Origin: Anthracocystis setariae
Taxonomy: Eukaryota > Basidiomycota > Ustilaginomycetes > Ustilaginales > Ustilaginaceae
Direction: 5' to 3'
DNA: 64,000 nucleotides
NCBI GenBank assembly: GCA_928724745.1
Contig: CAKMXJ010000008.1
Location: forward strand, 496,001-560,000
The position numbers and the translations under genes are program-made. The notes under the pieces are model-generated. The model ran no database searches, was not told where the DNA came from, and worked only from the letters and a program-made list of their open reading frames with translations. Shown here in pieces: positions 59,460 to 64,000 of this stretch; position 1 is the stretch's first letter, and each line of letters begins with the position of its first letter.

Positions 59460-60824
59460 CTAAAGTCTCCAACGCTTCCCAACTTCGAGTCCGTCTTGCA
59501 ACTTCTGACCGCTCGTCGGCTTAGCTTCAGCCTCGGCAGCAGCAGCAGTAGTAGTATCAGTTTGCGCCTCGCGCCTCGCTTCCTCATCCGGCACCGACCT
59601 CACATCCAAACCCTTACCGTTTTGATCGACCTCCATAAAGTTGGGTCTCAACCTCGAGATACTCACGTACCCGTTGAGGATCGCCCACACATCCGTCCCG
59701 TCGGGCAGCTTCTTTGGCCCAAGCAACGAACCCATGTTGGGAGCAAAGTGGAGAACGTGCTGCGGTGTGGGCGCAGTTGGTGGTTGCGGTGCCGGGGGCG
59801 CAGGATAGTTGGCCGTACTCTCGGCAGCAAAGAGTGGACCGTAGCGGTTCTGCCAGATTCGCGTCCACACCACTTCGGGCTTCGAAATCGTCTCGCAGAG
59901 GGGAACGTTGATGCTGTAGCAGCCTACATCAGGTTCGTTGGGCCAGTTGGTGTAGAGACGGTGGATGAGGTTGGCCGACAGCTTGTTGGCCTCGGCGGCG
60001 ACCTTTTGCAGCTCGGTAGGCTCAAGACCCGGACCTTTTGCGTTGGATCGGTGGGCGAATGTGGGAGGGTTGGACATGAAATGACCGAACGAGACTGCGA
60101 TGCTCTTGACGCCTGCAAGAGATGCTGCCATGGCTGCACCGAGAGTTCCGGACGAGAGCGCAAACGCTGTGCCCGTGTTTCTGCCAAAGTTGGGACCGGA
60201 TACGACCAGGTCGAATGGAGTGTTTATGCTGGCGGCTGCTTGTCGTTCGGCAGCCGTCTCGCCGAAGAAAGCGTTCTGGTTGAACATACCCGAATTAGCA
60301 GCCGTAGTGGGTGAGCCATCGAGGAGGATCCATTCTGCGATCTCACCTCGTTGGCGATTGATGGGTCGACGTGTAGCTGACCAAGATTCAGCTGTGCCAA
60401 CATGCTTTCCGTTGAAGTTGTCTTTGAGCGGATAATAGTACCAGTAAGCCACGGGGCCCTGGAGAGAGAACTGCATGGAGCCCCACGACTTTTGATACGA
60501 AGGGAGCACTACGCTCACATCCCAGCCCAGGGCGGTGAGCTCTTGGTACAAGCCAAGCACATGGGGTGACGAGGCAGAAGGCGGGCCATCATCGTTAACC
60601 AGAAGCACTTTGAGTCTAGCGTTGGTAGTCGAGGTCATGTTGTCTATCGTGCTGGAGGTTGAGAGTGAAGGAGCGTCGTGCGTGTCCGAGAGCTCTGCGT
60701 CTATGTGAATGCCGTGTTGGTCAGAGTAGAGATGCGAGCCAAGATGATTGCGATAAACAAGTACGGAGACGAGGACGATAAGCAGATAGGTGAAGAGTGT
60801 GTGCAGCGAAGCGATCCGTAACAT
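59460..60824 (-). CDS. membrane-anchored SurE-like phosphatase
   Basis: A 454-residue protein with an N-terminal hydrophobic helix (about 8-24, signal anchor or signal peptide) and a SurE-fold domain from about residue 70. Fold markers are Val-Leu-Leu-Val-Asn-Asp-Asp-Gly near 70-78, in which the Asp pair binds metal, and Val-Val-Ser-Gly-Pro-Asn-Phe-Gly-Arg-Asn near 210, the second metal-binding Asn-containing loop. SurE proteins are acid phosphatases or 5'/3'-nucleotidases. Most are soluble; the membrane anchor and the long insertion of about 60 residues (Trp-Tyr-Tyr-Tyr region) between the two metal motifs suggest a secretory or vacuolar enzyme. The Ala/Pro-rich C-terminal tail is disordered. 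If the N-terminal Met is wrong, a cytosolic form starts at the Met before Thr-Ser-Thr-Thr (near residue 63). Substrate unknown. Confidence 0.88.
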   Translation of the reverse strand: MLRIASLHTLFTYLLIVLVSVLVYRNHLGSHLYSDQHGIHIDAELSDTHDAPSLSTSSTIDNMTSTTNARLKVLLVNDDGPPSASSPHVLGLYQELTALGWDVSVVLPSYQKSWGSMQFSLQGPVAYWYYYPLKDNFNGKHVGTAESWSATRRPINRQRGEIAEWILLDGSPTTAANSGMFNQNAFFGETAAERQAAASINTPFDLVVSGPNFGRNTGTAFALSSGTLGAAMAASLAGVKSIAVSFGHFMSNPPTFAHRSNAKGPGLEPTELQKVAAEANKLSANLIHRLYTNWPNEPDVGCYSINVPLCETISKPEVVWTRIWQNRYGPLFAAESTANYPAPPAPQPPTAPTPQHVLHFAPNMGSLLGPKKLPDGTDVWAILNGYVSISRLRPNFMEVDQNGKGLDVRSVPDEEARREAQTDTTTAAAAEAEAKPTSGQKLQDGLEVGKRWRL

Positions 60825-61216
60825 GAATCTCGCGACACTAGTTGCTGTTGCTGTATGTTGTTATGGCCGGACGAAAGGCAAGAAGGCAAGAATGAATGCC
60901 ATCGGTGTCTCTCGATTGCCGCTGCACCGACCACCCAAAGCGATGCACAGTGAGCTAATGCACAATTTTCCCAGTTTGAGTTGTGAGACCGCTCTAAGTG
61001 ACAGACGTCTCTCGCTTCCAACAAATCACATTATATTCACATCGGCCTTTGCCTCCACTCCCTCATCCTCCTATCCCAGCGACGACAACGACGATCACCC
61101 TTATAGCGTGCCAATCCACGCCAACTCTTGCTCCACATATTCTTGCCAGGATCGCTTCGTCAGACGAATTCGAACTGCAGCCTCTCGATCGAGGCTCGGC
61201 TACTCACTCGGTCATC
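60825..61216. promoter_or_regulatory. divergent region between SurE gene and inverted P5B 3' half
   Basis: A 392-bp stretch upstream of both a minus-strand and a plus-strand ORF. If the P5B block was inverted, this was ancestrally the region between the P5B 3' end and the SurE promoter, so its use as a promoter for the plus-strand ORF would be new. The plus frame is open from 60998. Confidence 0.45.
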
Positions 61217-61828
61217 ATGGCCAACCAATACCCGCCCATCCATCCCAAGGCACCCACCGCCAACCTCGTATCGTGCAAAGTGCTCGTCAGCCTCATCGGC
61301 CAAGTCGTCATCTGTGGCGCATTCCAACTATGGGCGTTCCTCTTTGTGCGACACCAGGACTGGTACACTCCCCCACAAGTGAATCCTGACGAGCTCAACA
61401 CCTCAAACCCGGAGAACTCGGCGGTCTTCCTCATCTCGAGCTTCCAATACGTATTCGGCGCACTCATCTACAGCACAGGCTATCCATATCGCAAACCCGT
61501 CTACACAAATGCCTGGCTTATGGGCACAGTGACAGTGCTCCTCATCTTCTCCCTCCTGGCCCTGTTCACTCCTTCAGGATTTTTGCCAGATCTGCTCGAA
61601 CTCGTCGAATTCCCCCTATCGTTCCGAATCTCCCTCCTCGTCGCGATCGTGCTCAACACCATCATCTGCTTCCTCTTCGAATCCTTCGCTGCAAAGTACC
61701 TCGTCAGGATCGTAAGAGCGTTGCAGCGTCTCGTATCGCGCAGGTCGAAACGCTCGAAATCCAGAAAGCATGCCAACAAAATGTACAAGGCCGTAGAAAG
61801 GAGCATGCAGCTCGACGGCGAAATTTGA
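61217..61828 (+). CDS. P5B ATPase TM7-TM10 module on the opposite strand
   Basis: A 203-residue ORF with four hydrophobic helices (about 20-46, 66-90, 97-120 and 132-160) and a basic Lys/Arg/Ser tail. Its sequence matches the C-terminal part of YPK9/ATP13A2: the loop block Ile-His-Pro-Lys-Ala-Pro-Thr-Ala-Asn-Leu-Val-Ser precedes TM7, Phe-Leu-Ile-Ser-Ser-Phe-Gln-Tyr lies in TM8, and Pro-Tyr-Arg-Lys-Pro-Val-Tyr-Thr-Asn follows it. These lie in the order seen in intact P5B ATPases, but no catalytic domains precede them. The matching N-terminal part is on the opposite strand at 61984-64000. The ATG at 61217 sits three codons from where homology begins. There is no stop or frameshift within it. 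If expressed it would be a four-helix protein; otherwise it is the stranded end of an inverted gene. Confidence 0.85.
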   Translation: MANQYPPIHPKAPTANLVSCKVLVSLIGQVVICGAFQLWAFLFVRHQDWYTPPQVNPDELNTSNPENSAVFLISSFQYVFGALIYSTGYPYRKPVYTNAWLMGTVTVLLIFSLLALFTPSGFLPDLLELVEFPLSFRISLLVAIVLNTIICFLFESFAAKYLVRIVRALQRLVSRRSKRSKSRKHANKMYKAVERSMQLDGEI

Positions 61829-61983
61829 TTTCTCCCCTTTCCTTCCTTCCTTCCTTCCTTCCTTCCTTCTTCCTTGTCGGTTTTGTACTTGTATCTTGCC
61901 ACTCGCACTGTCGTTTCACTCGCTAATGCTACCGCTATTCGCACTGGAACTCGTGAGCAGAGAATCGTATCGTATTGCGATTG
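61829..61983. repeat. (CCTT)n tract between the two P5B halves
   Basis: The 155-bp gap between the two convergent stop codons contains a near-perfect CCTT tetranucleotide tract at about 61841-61869. The rest would have been the original 3'UTR of the ATPase gene. Confidence 0.7.
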
Positions 61984-64000
61984 CTATGGTGGACCTGTAC
62001 GCGCCGAGAAGACGCTCAGCAGCAGCGCCGCGAAGTCGGCGTACATGAACATGAGATCGGACAAACTGCTACCGAACGAATACAACAACAACACTGAAAC
62101 GAACTGGATCATGGAGCAGAGGACGATGTAGGAAAAAGCGCCGAACGAGGTGACCAGTGCGGCGCGGCCTTCCTTGATCACATCGAGCACGCACGAGATG
62201 TTGTTCACGGACGACGTAAACGGTGCTGCCACCGACGCCTCGGCTTCAGACAACGAGATGCCGATATCAGCTGCCTTGAGTGCACCACAGTCGTTGGCAC
62301 CATCACCACACATGCCCACCGTATACCCCAACGCCTGCAACCGTTCGATCAACTCGTGCTTTTCATCCGGCGACATCCTGGCAAAGATGGTGCCCTTGAT
62401 CAGCATCCTACGCAAAGTCTCGACCGGCGCAAAGTCGATCATCCACCTAAACACATCCCCCGTCAAAGCAAGTTGGTAGTCCTGGAAATCAAACTCGTCC
62501 AAATCCAACACATGTCGATCCACCTCCCTCGGCTGCAGATTATACGCATCCAGCTTGATCCGATCATCATCTACACTCGACCAATCCACCACCGCTCTCG
62601 AACTCCTCTGCCCACCCTCGACAAACGTCGGCATAAACACATGCGCAGACTGCCCCACCATCCCGCACTCGCGCGCAACACTGATCGCCGTCCTCGGATT
62701 ATCGCCCGTCACCATCTTGGTGATGATGTTCGCCTGCTTCAGCACCTCGATCGCCGGCGCCGTCTCGTCCTTGAGCTTATTCTCAAAGATGATCAGCCCC
62801 AGAAAACGCAATCCGCTCTCGGCCTGTTCTCGACGCATCCGCTGCGCCTTGATCCAGCTCATGCCTGCCATGGATTTGCCAGCACACGCGATCACACGAT
62901 ACCCATGCTTGGTGTAGTACGACAGCAGGTCGTCGTAGTCCGCAGGGAACGTATCCTTGTCGCAGATATCCACCATCACCTCGGGCGCACCTTTGACAAA
63001 CACCTCCATTGACTGCGATTTCAGTCGCTTGACAATCACGCTCATTCGGCGAAGTGACGAAACAAATTCAAACGTACGCAGCACGCCCAGTTCGAGAAAG
63101 TGCGCATGCCGTCCAGACTTGATCGCATCCTCAACCTCGAAAGCTTGTCCACCGGGTGGACGTACCACCGTTTGCACCAGTGCCGGAGGTCGTTCGGTGA
63201 GTTTCGATTTGCCGTTCTTAGCCGTACCCGTCTTGGTCGTCGCCTTGGCGGATCGCTCCTTGCCTTCGTCCAGCGTCCAGCCGGTATACTCGAACATCTT
63301 GACATCCAGCGGATCACCTATCACCTCGCCATCCACCACTTTGAGCGAATGGCACGTGGCGAGTGCATACAGCAGCGGCATCTTGCGCGCATCCGCATCG
63401 CTCTTGGAGCCCATGCCCACCGGCATCTCGTCCACGGTCTCGTGCAGTTCACTGAATCGGCCCGCCTTGAGATCGATCGTTCGGGTCCCAAGCACGTCGA
63501 GCCCGTCCGCGGTGAGCGTACCGGTCTTGTCGAAGCAGAAGACGTTGACCTTGCCTCCGATGATGACGCGATTGGGCGAGATGCAGAAGATGTTGAGCTT
63601 GCGAAGACGGTTGATGGCGAAAGAGATGCCGATCGACATGGTGGCAGGCAAAGCAGGCGGCACCACCACAGTGACAAGATCCAGCGCACGGATCACAATC
63701 GTGTGCCAAGCGATGCCGATCTTGACGAAGTTGACAGCCGAGAAGGTGAAGCCGATTCCCGCGACAATCGCAAGGAAGCCGATGAAGCGGAACGAATCGC
63801 GGTAGAACTTAAAGCCCATTGGTTTGGGGAACAGCATGCTGCGCACCAGCGCACCTTTGGTAGTGTTGAATCCAGTGCGTACAACCATCGCCTTGGCGCC
63901 AGTCTCGTTCTTATCGGTCGAACCATTGCCACGGATGCGAATGATGCGAGTCCCGGAGAAGAGGAAGTGCTTGGCGAGATCAGCGGTGACCTCGGTGCCC
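61984..64000 (-). CDS. YPK9: P5B-type ATPase, partial, ends after TM6
   Basis: The gene runs off the right edge of the window; 671 residues are visible before the stop. P5B ATPases (yeast Ypk9, human ATP13A2) reside in vacuolar or lysosomal membranes and export polyamines to the cytosol. Seen in order: the end of the actuator domain, TM3-TM4 with Pro-Pro-Ala-Leu-Pro (the P5B substrate-site motif), Asp-Lys-Thr-Gly-Thr-Leu-Thr (phosphorylated Asp near 63532), the nucleotide-binding domain, Gly-Asp-Gly-Ala-Asn-Asp (near 62297-62317), and TM5-TM6. The protein then ends seven residues after TM6 (Ala-Arg-Thr-Gly-Pro-Pro-stop), whereas family members continue with four more helices. The missing helices are encoded on the other strand at 61217-61828. 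The N-terminus is outside the window. Confidence 0.92.
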   Translation of the reverse strand, partial: GTEVTADLAKHFLFSGTRIIRIRGNGSTDKNETGAKAMVVRTGFNTTKGALVRSMLFPKPMGFKFYRDSFRFIGFLAIVAGIGFTFSAVNFVKIGIAWHTIVIRALDLVTVVVPPALPATMSIGISFAINRLRKLNIFCISPNRVIIGGKVNVFCFDKTGTLTADGLDVLGTRTIDLKAGRFSELHETVDEMPVGMGSKSDADARKMPLLYALATCHSLKVVDGEVIGDPLDVKMFEYTGWTLDEGKERSAKATTKTGTAKNGKSKLTERPPALVQTVVRPPGGQAFEVEDAIKSGRHAHFLELGVLRTFEFVSSLRRMSVIVKRLKSQSMEVFVKGAPEVMVDICDKDTFPADYDDLLSYYTKHGYRVIACAGKSMAGMSWIKAQRMRREQAESGLRFLGLIIFENKLKDETAPAIEVLKQANIITKMVTGDNPRTAISVARECGMVGQSAHVFMPTFVEGGQRSSRAVVDWSSVDDDRIKLDAYNLQPREVDRHVLDLDEFDFQDYQLALTGDVFRWMIDFAPVETLRRMLIKGTIFARMSPDEKHELIERLQALGYTVGMCGDGANDCGALKAADIGISLSEAEASVAAPFTSSVNNISCVLDVIKEGRAALVTSFGAFSYIVLCSMIQFVSVLLLYSFGSSLSDLMFMYADFAALLLSVFSARTGPP

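What the first reader, a model, noticed from the sequence alone, without database searches (positions are those of the whole stretch)
61217..64000. P5B ATPase split by an in-place inversion: TM7-TM10 on the opposite strand
Seen directly: the minus-strand ATPase ends just after TM6, at Ala-Arg-Thr-Gly-Pro-Pro-stop (61984). The plus-strand ORF 61217-61828 encodes the missing continuation from the TM6-TM7 loop through TM10, beginning with Tyr-Pro-Pro-Ile-His-Pro-Lys. Known from the family: Ypk9 and ATP13A2 carry both parts in one chain, joined exactly at this loop. Inference: a block of about 0.77 kb, roughly 61225-61985, has been inverted. One breakpoint gave the C-terminal half an ATG in reasonable context, and the other placed a TAG two codons after the break in the N-terminal half. 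Neither half shows stops or frameshifts, so the event is either very recent, an assembly error, or the two halves are kept as a split pump that assembles in trans. The last would be a new architecture for a P-type ATPase.
Basis: partly seen in the sequence, partly recalled or inferred. Interest (0 to 1): 0.9.

Follow-up and report, generated by a model that had tools for sequence, protein, structure and literature searches.

The report
Conserved two-piece polyamine pump in smuts
In smut fungi a membrane pump that other organisms make as one chain is encoded as two genes on opposite strands, an old and conserved split that probably makes a two-part pump, not a mistake in the genome sequence.

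Summary
A minus-strand P5B ATPase ends at the cytosolic tip of TM6, and a 203-aa plus-strand ORF encodes exactly the rest, TM7-TM10 plus the C-terminal tail. It is neither an assembly error nor private to this genome. Of the 120 best N-half relatives, 19 stop within one residue of the same point and 101 run on. Twenty-five stand-alone TM7-10 proteins exist, including U. maydis UMAG_05267. The 20 split proteins form one clade (support 100), sister to unsplit Violaceomyces, so one fission preceded the common ancestor of Thecaphora and Ustilaginaceae. Against five other species the catalytic half is far more conserved than the intact second P5B, and the C-half about as conserved as that pump's TM7-10. 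Clade-specific changes concentrate in TM5-TM6 and around TM7-TM8; an otherwise invariant spermine-contacting Tyr is Thr or Cys. Most likely the halves assemble in trans as a two-subunit P5B pump with a remodelled cargo pathway; assembly and transport are inferred, not shown. My literature searches found no natural split P-type ATPase; the nearest precedent is Split-Doa10 of Kluyveromyces. In-place inversion is possible but unproven.

The parts
61984..64000 (-). N-half of the split P5B ATPase (part inside the window; the gene continues to G000:C8:562384, 1466 aa in all): A, P and N domains and the membrane core to TM6, stop TAG at 61984-61986
61996..62058 (-). TM6, last helix of the N-half, with clade-specific replacements and a one-residue deletion next to the conserved D1184-equivalent (Asp codon at 62035-62037)
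   Evidence: helix limits from a low-confidence model
62116..62118 (-). codon of the TM5 position equivalent to Ypk9 Y1157 (spermine contact): Cys here, Thr in the 19 other split proteins, Tyr in 101 of 101 unsplit
   Evidence: ligand role from PMC8233418 section 7
61217..61828 (+). C-half: separate gene for the TM6-TM7 loop, TM7-TM10 and C-terminal tail, 203 aa, ATG in the context GTCATCATGGCC
61829..61983 (.). 155-bp interval between the two convergent stop codons, with a TTCC simple repeat
60825..61216 (.). 392-bp divergent interval expected to hold the C-half promoter and that of the SurE gene (inferred; no transcript data)
59460..60824 (-). neighbour: SurE-family gene (PF01975), divergent to the C-half; not part of the pump

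Best explanation
The locus holds a P5B (ATP13A2/Ypk9-type) pump whose gene was split once, in an ancestor of Thecaphora (Urocystidales) and the Ustilaginaceae, in the loop between TM6 and TM7. Shown: one chain carries the catalytic domains and the membrane core to TM6; a second, separately encoded chain carries the support helices TM7-TM10 and the cytosolic tail; both are conserved across the clade. Inferred: the two chains are expressed from separate promoters and bind each other in the membrane, the TM7-10 chain packing against TM5/TM6 and its tail against the P domain as in one-chain P5B pumps. They then run the usual phosphorylation cycle through the DKTGT, TGES and VPPALP elements, moving a polyamine-like cargo through a pocket altered at TM5 and TM6. 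The split probably arose by a rearrangement with a breakpoint in that loop, followed by adjustment of the new interface.
For: Break shared: 20 of 20 split N-halves stop 0-1 residue past the same position; the other 101 of the 120 listed hits continue (the list is the best 120 of 5966). Twenty-five stand-alone C-halves of 142-307 aa from a length-limited search. One clade, support 100, sister unsplit Violaceomyces, joint node 100. Both halves carry the same longest-contig length in seven cases: U. loliicola, T. cyperi, U. trichophora, P. flocculosa, T. frezii, S. scitamineum and one unnamed 33,990-base contig. Constraint, window species against five others: N-half core 88.6-93.0% identical, intact paralog core 66.3-76.7%; C-half 65.8-72.8%, paralog TM7-10 52.1-75.3%. 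Catalytic Asp and acidic cargo residues kept in 20 of 20. Changed sites lie mostly near the break: last 29 N residues 9 of 21 conserved sites, elsewhere 10 of 452 (Fisher p 7e-9, region chosen after seeing the alignment), plus TM7 entry and TM8 in the C-half. The modelled C-half matches P5B structures best (7op3, E 1.9e-7, probability 1.00). Artificially split SERCA fragments and Split-Doa10 show that such pieces can reassemble (PMC3464245, abstract and passages).
Against: No RNA, protein or interaction data. The C-half evolves relatively faster than in unsplit pumps: C/N tree-length ratio 2.99 in the split clade, 1.69 in unsplit; parsimony ratio 1.75, 95% range 1.45-2.14. In the three nearer species the C-half is slightly less conserved (68.6-72.8%) than the paralog's TM7-10 (72.6-75.3%). 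A spermine-contacting Tyr is gone in all 20 split proteins, so activity or cargo may have changed. Nine named split-clade species also have the other, intact P5B. TM6/TM8 contact was not measured: no coordinates were available, and the N-half model is poor (pLDDT 58). Two of 11 aligned split proteins vary inside catalytic motifs (TGES 10 of 11, GDGANDCG 10 of 11). dN/dS could not be computed because no relative's DNA was available. For U. maydis only the C-half, and for U. hordei and P. hubeiensis only the N-half, was identified by name.
Confidence: 0.83

Rival explanations
1. The halves no longer form the ancestral pump: the N-half works alone or with another partner, and the C-half has taken another role, for example as a free four-helix membrane protein or regulator.
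For: Faster relative evolution of the C-half; lost spermine-contact Tyr and remodelled TM6; intact paralog available.
Against: The C-half keeps the P5B support fold and the tail motif of unsplit relatives, with TM7-10 constraint close to that of an intact pump. A recent review lists seven to twelve helices for P-type ATPase families, none with six only (PMC10654040, passages).
Confidence: 0.11
2. Trans-splicing joins the two transcripts into one mRNA, so the protein is still one chain.
For: Next to nothing is lost or doubled at the junction; the N-half end is unusually constant. By hand (no splice prediction), the GT before the N-half stop is in phase with the AG nearest the C-half ATG, though out of phase with another AG further upstream, so phase does not exclude it.
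Against: Each half has its own stop or start codon at the break; the C-half tail before the conserved IHPK varies in length and sequence, as for a real N-terminus. Joining of transcripts from opposite strands is rare (recalled).
Confidence: 0.03
3. Decaying gene: the pump was broken by the rearrangement and both pieces are relics, with the intact paralog doing the work.
For: An intact P5B paralog exists in this genome.
Against: The N-half is much more conserved between species than the intact paralog; both window ORFs are open and the C-half has coding-like codon use; the relatives are recorded as proteins with the same ends.
Confidence: 0.01
4. Assembly error or strain-private inversion.
For: None beyond the odd geometry.
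Against: The same break appears in independent genomes and metagenomes.
Confidence: 0.01
5. A reversible DNA inversion that switches the pump on and off.
For: Opposite strands, short block.
Against: No inverted repeats at the block edges; in other species the halves lie further apart by locus tag.
Confidence: 0.01

Closest known systems
P5B ATPases: Ypk9-type (7op1, 7op3, 7op5, 7op8) and human ATP13A2
   Same: Catalytic motifs, VPPALP motif, acidic spermine residues, TM7-10 fold and C-terminal tail; the C-half model is 29-32% identical to the four 7op chains.
   Different: Two separately encoded chains; a conserved spermine-contact Tyr replaced; TM6 remodelled and one residue shorter.
Split-Doa10 of Kluyveromyces (PMC3464245)
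   Same: Nuclear fission of a polytopic membrane protein gene at a cytosolic loop, conserved across a clade, fragments separately encoded (abstract and passages).
   Different: Doa10 is a ubiquitin ligase; its ORFs are separated by a 508-bp insert with a promoter, and assembly was shown by experiment. Here the halves lie on opposite strands, the clade spans two orders, and assembly is untested.
Kdp-type (P1A) and other multi-subunit P-type ATPases
   Same: The catalytic chain works with separately encoded membrane partners (PMC10654040 passages).
   Different: There the partners are added subunits; here a piece of the usual catalytic chain itself, the support domain, is the separate subunit.
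Artificially split SERCA fragments
   Same: P-type ATPase pieces that can reassemble (cited in PMC3464245, passage; original not read).
   Different: Laboratory construct, not natural.

Membership tests
P5B ATPase | DKTGT phosphorylation Asp | tested here: met
   20 of 20 split N-halves; motif in 11 of 11 aligned
P5B ATPase | VPPALP signature in TM4 | tested here: met
   V, P, P in 20 of 20; PPALP in 11 of 11
P5B ATPase | Profile TIGR01657 above its curated cut-off | tested here: met
   N-half part in the window 708 bits against a cut-off of 618; the C-half alone matches only positions 920-1054, 78 bits. The profile also scores the P5A-like C28 protein, so motif and cargo residues decide P5B
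P5B ATPase | Acidic spermine residues (Ypk9 D630, D1177, D1184 equivalents) | tested here: met
   20 of 20 each (equivalence by counting along alignments); roles from PMC8233418 section 7
P5B ATPase | Spermine-contacting Tyr of TM5 (Ypk9 Y1157) | tested here: not met
   Thr in 19, Cys in 1 (window) of 20; Tyr in 101 of 101 unsplit
P5B ATPase | Ten membrane helices in one chain | tested here: not met
   Two ORFs on opposite strands. The two genes together cover the family; neither alone does, so this is filed as a split variant, not an ordinary member
P5B ATPase | N-terminal P5 domain (PF12409) | not tested
   Precomputed for the split relatives; not run on the full window protein
P5B ATPase | Polyamine-stimulated ATPase activity | not testable with these tools
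   Needs purified protein
Naturally split (fissioned) membrane protein | Single-chain ancestor and one fission event | tested here: met
   All 101 listed hits outside the clade are unsplit at this point; split clade support 100
Naturally split (fissioned) membrane protein | Both pieces conserved after fission | tested here: met
Naturally split (fissioned) membrane protein | Pieces associate and restore function | not testable with these tools
   Only single-chain structure prediction was on hand

The most novel reading that the evidence does not exclude
The support domain of a P-type ATPase became an independent, separately regulated subunit in the ancestor of most smuts, and the pump then changed its cargo or gating (Tyr to Thr or Cys in the spermine site, rebuilt TM6, matching changes around TM8), leaving these fungi with one intact and one two-part P5B pump of different specificity.
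Probability: 0.35. Interest if true: 0.88.

Novelty: new variant of a known kind. Interest (0 to 1): 0.78.

Why it matters
P-type ATPases are treated as one catalytic chain with a six-helix transport core and extra support helices. Here nature has separated core from support at that border, and the sampled members of two fungal orders keep both pieces. That gives a natural system to ask what TM7-TM10 are for, whether the support domain can be supplied in trans, and whether dosing it separately regulates a polyamine pump. The shared replacement of an otherwise invariant cargo-site Tyr makes substrate change directly testable. If assembly is shown it would be, after Split-Doa10, another documented nuclear fission of a polytopic membrane protein.

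Tried and rejected
Assembly error, private inversion, pseudogene and reversible switch were tested and rejected. A scan of the prokaryote genome collection for relatives' DNA, for dN/dS, gave 26 pattern matches, none a relative by tblastn. The bacterial promoter scan is not informative for a fungus. The family search of the own genome with TIGR01657 never ran; the P5 complement of the genome therefore rests on the PF00122 list and the C-half search, which found three places: this gene, C32 and C28. The first C-half alignment cut the unsplit proteins at the wrong column and was redone. One Malassezia sequence (P0070) was dropped because its C-terminal end looks broken; it was kept. The Violaceomyces record is partial and stops 69 residues after the junction. 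The N-half model came out poor and is used only for rough TM6 limits. Testing whether changed TM6 and TM8 residues touch needs coordinates that the tools do not give. Of the ten non-window pairs used for rates, seven share a longest-contig length, two were paired by species name only (Kalmanozyma, Melanopsichium), and P0026/P0022 is an assumed Sporisorium pair whose contig lengths differ; the 33,990-base pair was aligned with P0012 in place of the truncated P0025. Species labels in scripts come from partly truncated source names.

Literature: UMAG_05267 (0 papers); 'P5B ATPase' + Ustilago (0); split gene and P-type ATPase terms (3 listed, none relevant by listing); 'naturally split' + 'P-type ATPase' (1, a gene-therapy study, listing only); Ypk9 + Ustilago maydis (1 review, listing only); Ustilaginomycetes + P-type ATPase + split (0); half-molecule terms (8 of 88 listed, none relevant by listing). 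One search (10 of 55 listed) gave Split-Doa10. The library lacks most subscription papers.
Full report
WHAT IS THERE. The window is bases 496001-560000 of contig 8 of a 21.5-Mb, 36-contig genome; by protein similarity it is a smut close to the Ustilaginaceae. On the minus strand a P5B ATPase of 1466 aa (start outside the window) ends ...SVFSARTGPP-TAG at 61984. On the plus strand, 61217-61828 encodes 203 aa beginning MANQYPPIHPKAPTANLVS. The two stops face each other across 155 bp. TIGR01657 places the minus ORF at profile positions 335-905 and the plus ORF at 920-1054. In the solved P5B chain 7op1 the N-half ends at 1200 and the C-half starts at 1203. The C-half model (pLDDT 75, pTM 0.62) matches P5B pumps first in the PDB: the 14 matches with E up to 0.001 are all Ypk9-type or ATP13A2 chains, best 7op3 with E 1.9e-7.

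IT IS OLD AND CONSERVED. A search with the C-half alone, which can only return proteins of similar length, found 25 relatives of 142-307 aa. The 11 named ones are all smuts or smut yeasts: U. maydis (UMAG_05267), U. trichophora, U. loliicola, S. scitamineum, S. graminicola, S. reilianum, Kalmanozyma, Melanopsichium, Testicularia, P. flocculosa and Thecaphora frezii. A search with the N-half core listed the best 120 of 5966 relatives. Nineteen of them and the window end 0-1 residue past the same point (ARTGPP, once ARTGPY, once ARTGPA); the other 101 run on through the loop, some of them truncated further on. The 20 split proteins form one clade (support 100) whose sister is unsplit Violaceomyces palustris (joint node 100); that Violaceomyces record is partial but passes the junction by 69 residues. 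Violaceomyces, Thecaphora and Pseudozyma flocculosa are listed in Violaceomycetales, Urocystidales and Ustilaginales of one class. One fission before the common ancestor of Thecaphora and the Ustilaginaceae is the simplest history. Thecaphora and P. flocculosa group together within the split clade, which does not follow the taxonomy listing; I did not resolve this, and no date was computed.

BOTH HALVES ARE UNDER CONSTRAINT. Between the window species and five others the N-half core is 88.6-93.0% identical, whereas the core of the intact P5B paralog is 66.3-76.7%. The C-half is 65.8-72.8% identical; TM7-10 of the intact paralog is 52.1-75.3%. In the three nearer species the C-half is slightly less conserved than the paralog's TM7-10 (68.6-72.8 against 72.6-75.3%), in the two farther ones more (65.8 and 65.8 against 52.1 and 59.6%). 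Codon use in the C-half is coding-like in its own frame only. Against this, the C-half has sped up relative to the N-half: tree-length ratio 2.99 in the split clade, 2.89 on its stem, 1.69 in unsplit relatives (11 and 17 taxa); by parsimony 1.75-fold, 95% range 1.45-2.14. So constraint is somewhat relaxed or changed, not lost. The last 30 N-core columns changed less often than the rest of the core in unsplit relatives (1.57 against 2.36 steps per site) but more often in split ones (1.03 against 0.41).

WHERE IT CHANGED. Of 473 N-core sites conserved in at least 85% of 17 unsplit relatives, 19 have lost that residue in at least 10 of 11 split ones. Seventeen of the 19 lie in the last 66 residues, from just before TM5 to the end; in the last 29 residues it is 9 of 21 sites, elsewhere 10 of 452 (Fisher p 7e-9, with the region chosen after seeing the alignment). 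In the C-half 8 of 64 such sites changed: three at the TM7 entry, four in and just after TM8, one in the next helix. TM6 also lost one residue next to its key Asp. This is what a new subunit interface would look like, but I could not measure contacts; TM6/TM8 packing is recalled, not tested. A cargo reading is also possible: the TM5 Tyr that touches spermine in Ypk9 (Y1157; PMC8233418 section 7, read) is Tyr in 101 of 101 unsplit and Thr (19) or Cys (1) in the 20 split proteins, while equivalents of D630, D1177, D1184 and of ATP13A2 W251, D254, Q944, F963 are kept in 20 of 20 (equivalence by counting along alignments; ATP13A2 residues from passages of PMC10082790 and PMC8564547). That the 7op entries are the Ypk9 of PMC8233418 is my reading; the D630 and D1184 positions agree with it.

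HOW IT LIKELY WORKS. A recent review divides P-type ATPases into a six-helix transport core and support helices (PMC10654040, passages). The break lies at that border. In ATP13A2 the C-terminal tail after TM10 contacts the P domain, and the domain is reported as essential for stability (PMC8564547, abstract and passages); split C-halves keep a tail with a YKAVER-like motif. I infer that the C-half inserts as a four-helix support subunit, packs against TM5/TM6 and docks its tail on the P domain. Its promoter is expected in the 392-bp divergent interval shared with a SurE gene. There are precedents for reassembly and for a maintained fission: artificially split SERCA, and Split-Doa10, a genus-wide nuclear fission with an active two-fragment enzyme (PMC3464245, abstract and passages).

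HOW IT AROSE. Tail-to-tail halves fit an in-place inversion of the 3' end. But the locus tags of the halves are consecutive in U. loliicola (002430/002431), 6 apart in P. flocculosa (05393/05399) and 12 apart in T. frezii (003792/003804). A larger inversion with one breakpoint in the gene, later compacted, fits as well. No repeat marks the edges now, as expected for an old event. Strands in the other genomes are unknown to me.

PARALOG. The genome has an intact second P5B-like protein with PPALP (C32, 1365 aa) and a P5A-like one with PPELP (C28, 1252 aa). Relatives of C32 occur in nine named split-clade entries (U. loliicola, U. hordei, Melanopsichium, three Sporisorium, P. hubeiensis, Thecaphora, P. 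flocculosa) and in Violaceomyces; none is named for Testicularia, U. trichophora or Kalmanozyma in the listed 120. This suggests that it predates the fission and did not arise to replace the split pump; I made no paralog tree. It carries its own cargo-site changes (Q944 to E, D1177 to N).

NOVELTY. My searches of open-access papers found no report of a naturally split P-type ATPase. I rate it a new variant of a known kind: the parts are P5B, the two-chain architecture is new as far as I could search, and the decisive biochemistry remains to be done.

Noticed in passing
G000:C32:69481-73578 (L014:3481-7578, minus): Intact, divergent P5B paralog whose own cargo-site residues differ (Q944-eq to E, D1177-eq to N) while Y1157-eq and D1184-eq are kept, so the two smut P5B pumps have complementary changes.
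   Followed up: partly
61157-61195: In-frame leader upstream of the C-half ATG reads SSDEFELQPLDRG and resembles SASNEIELQPLSRG in the long relative P0013; could be an extended N-terminus or a conserved 5' leader.
   Followed up: no
P. flocculosa and T. frezii (protein records P0019/P0043, P0018/P0042): Halves carry locus tags 6 and 12 apart instead of consecutive tags, and the two species group together although listed in different orders.
   Followed up: partly
61839-61868: TTCC simple repeat just after the C-half stop.
   Followed up: no
L010:4780-7131 (minus, outside the window): Next gene upstream of the N-half has SAM, RA and SH3 domains, like the smut signalling adaptor Ubc2 (name recalled).
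   Followed up: partly
P0038: A split N-half is filed under the plant Cichorium endivia, probably smut contamination of that assembly.
   Followed up: no
P0034: The Sporisorium protein reads TGEG in place of TGES; may be a real change or a sequence error.
   Followed up: no
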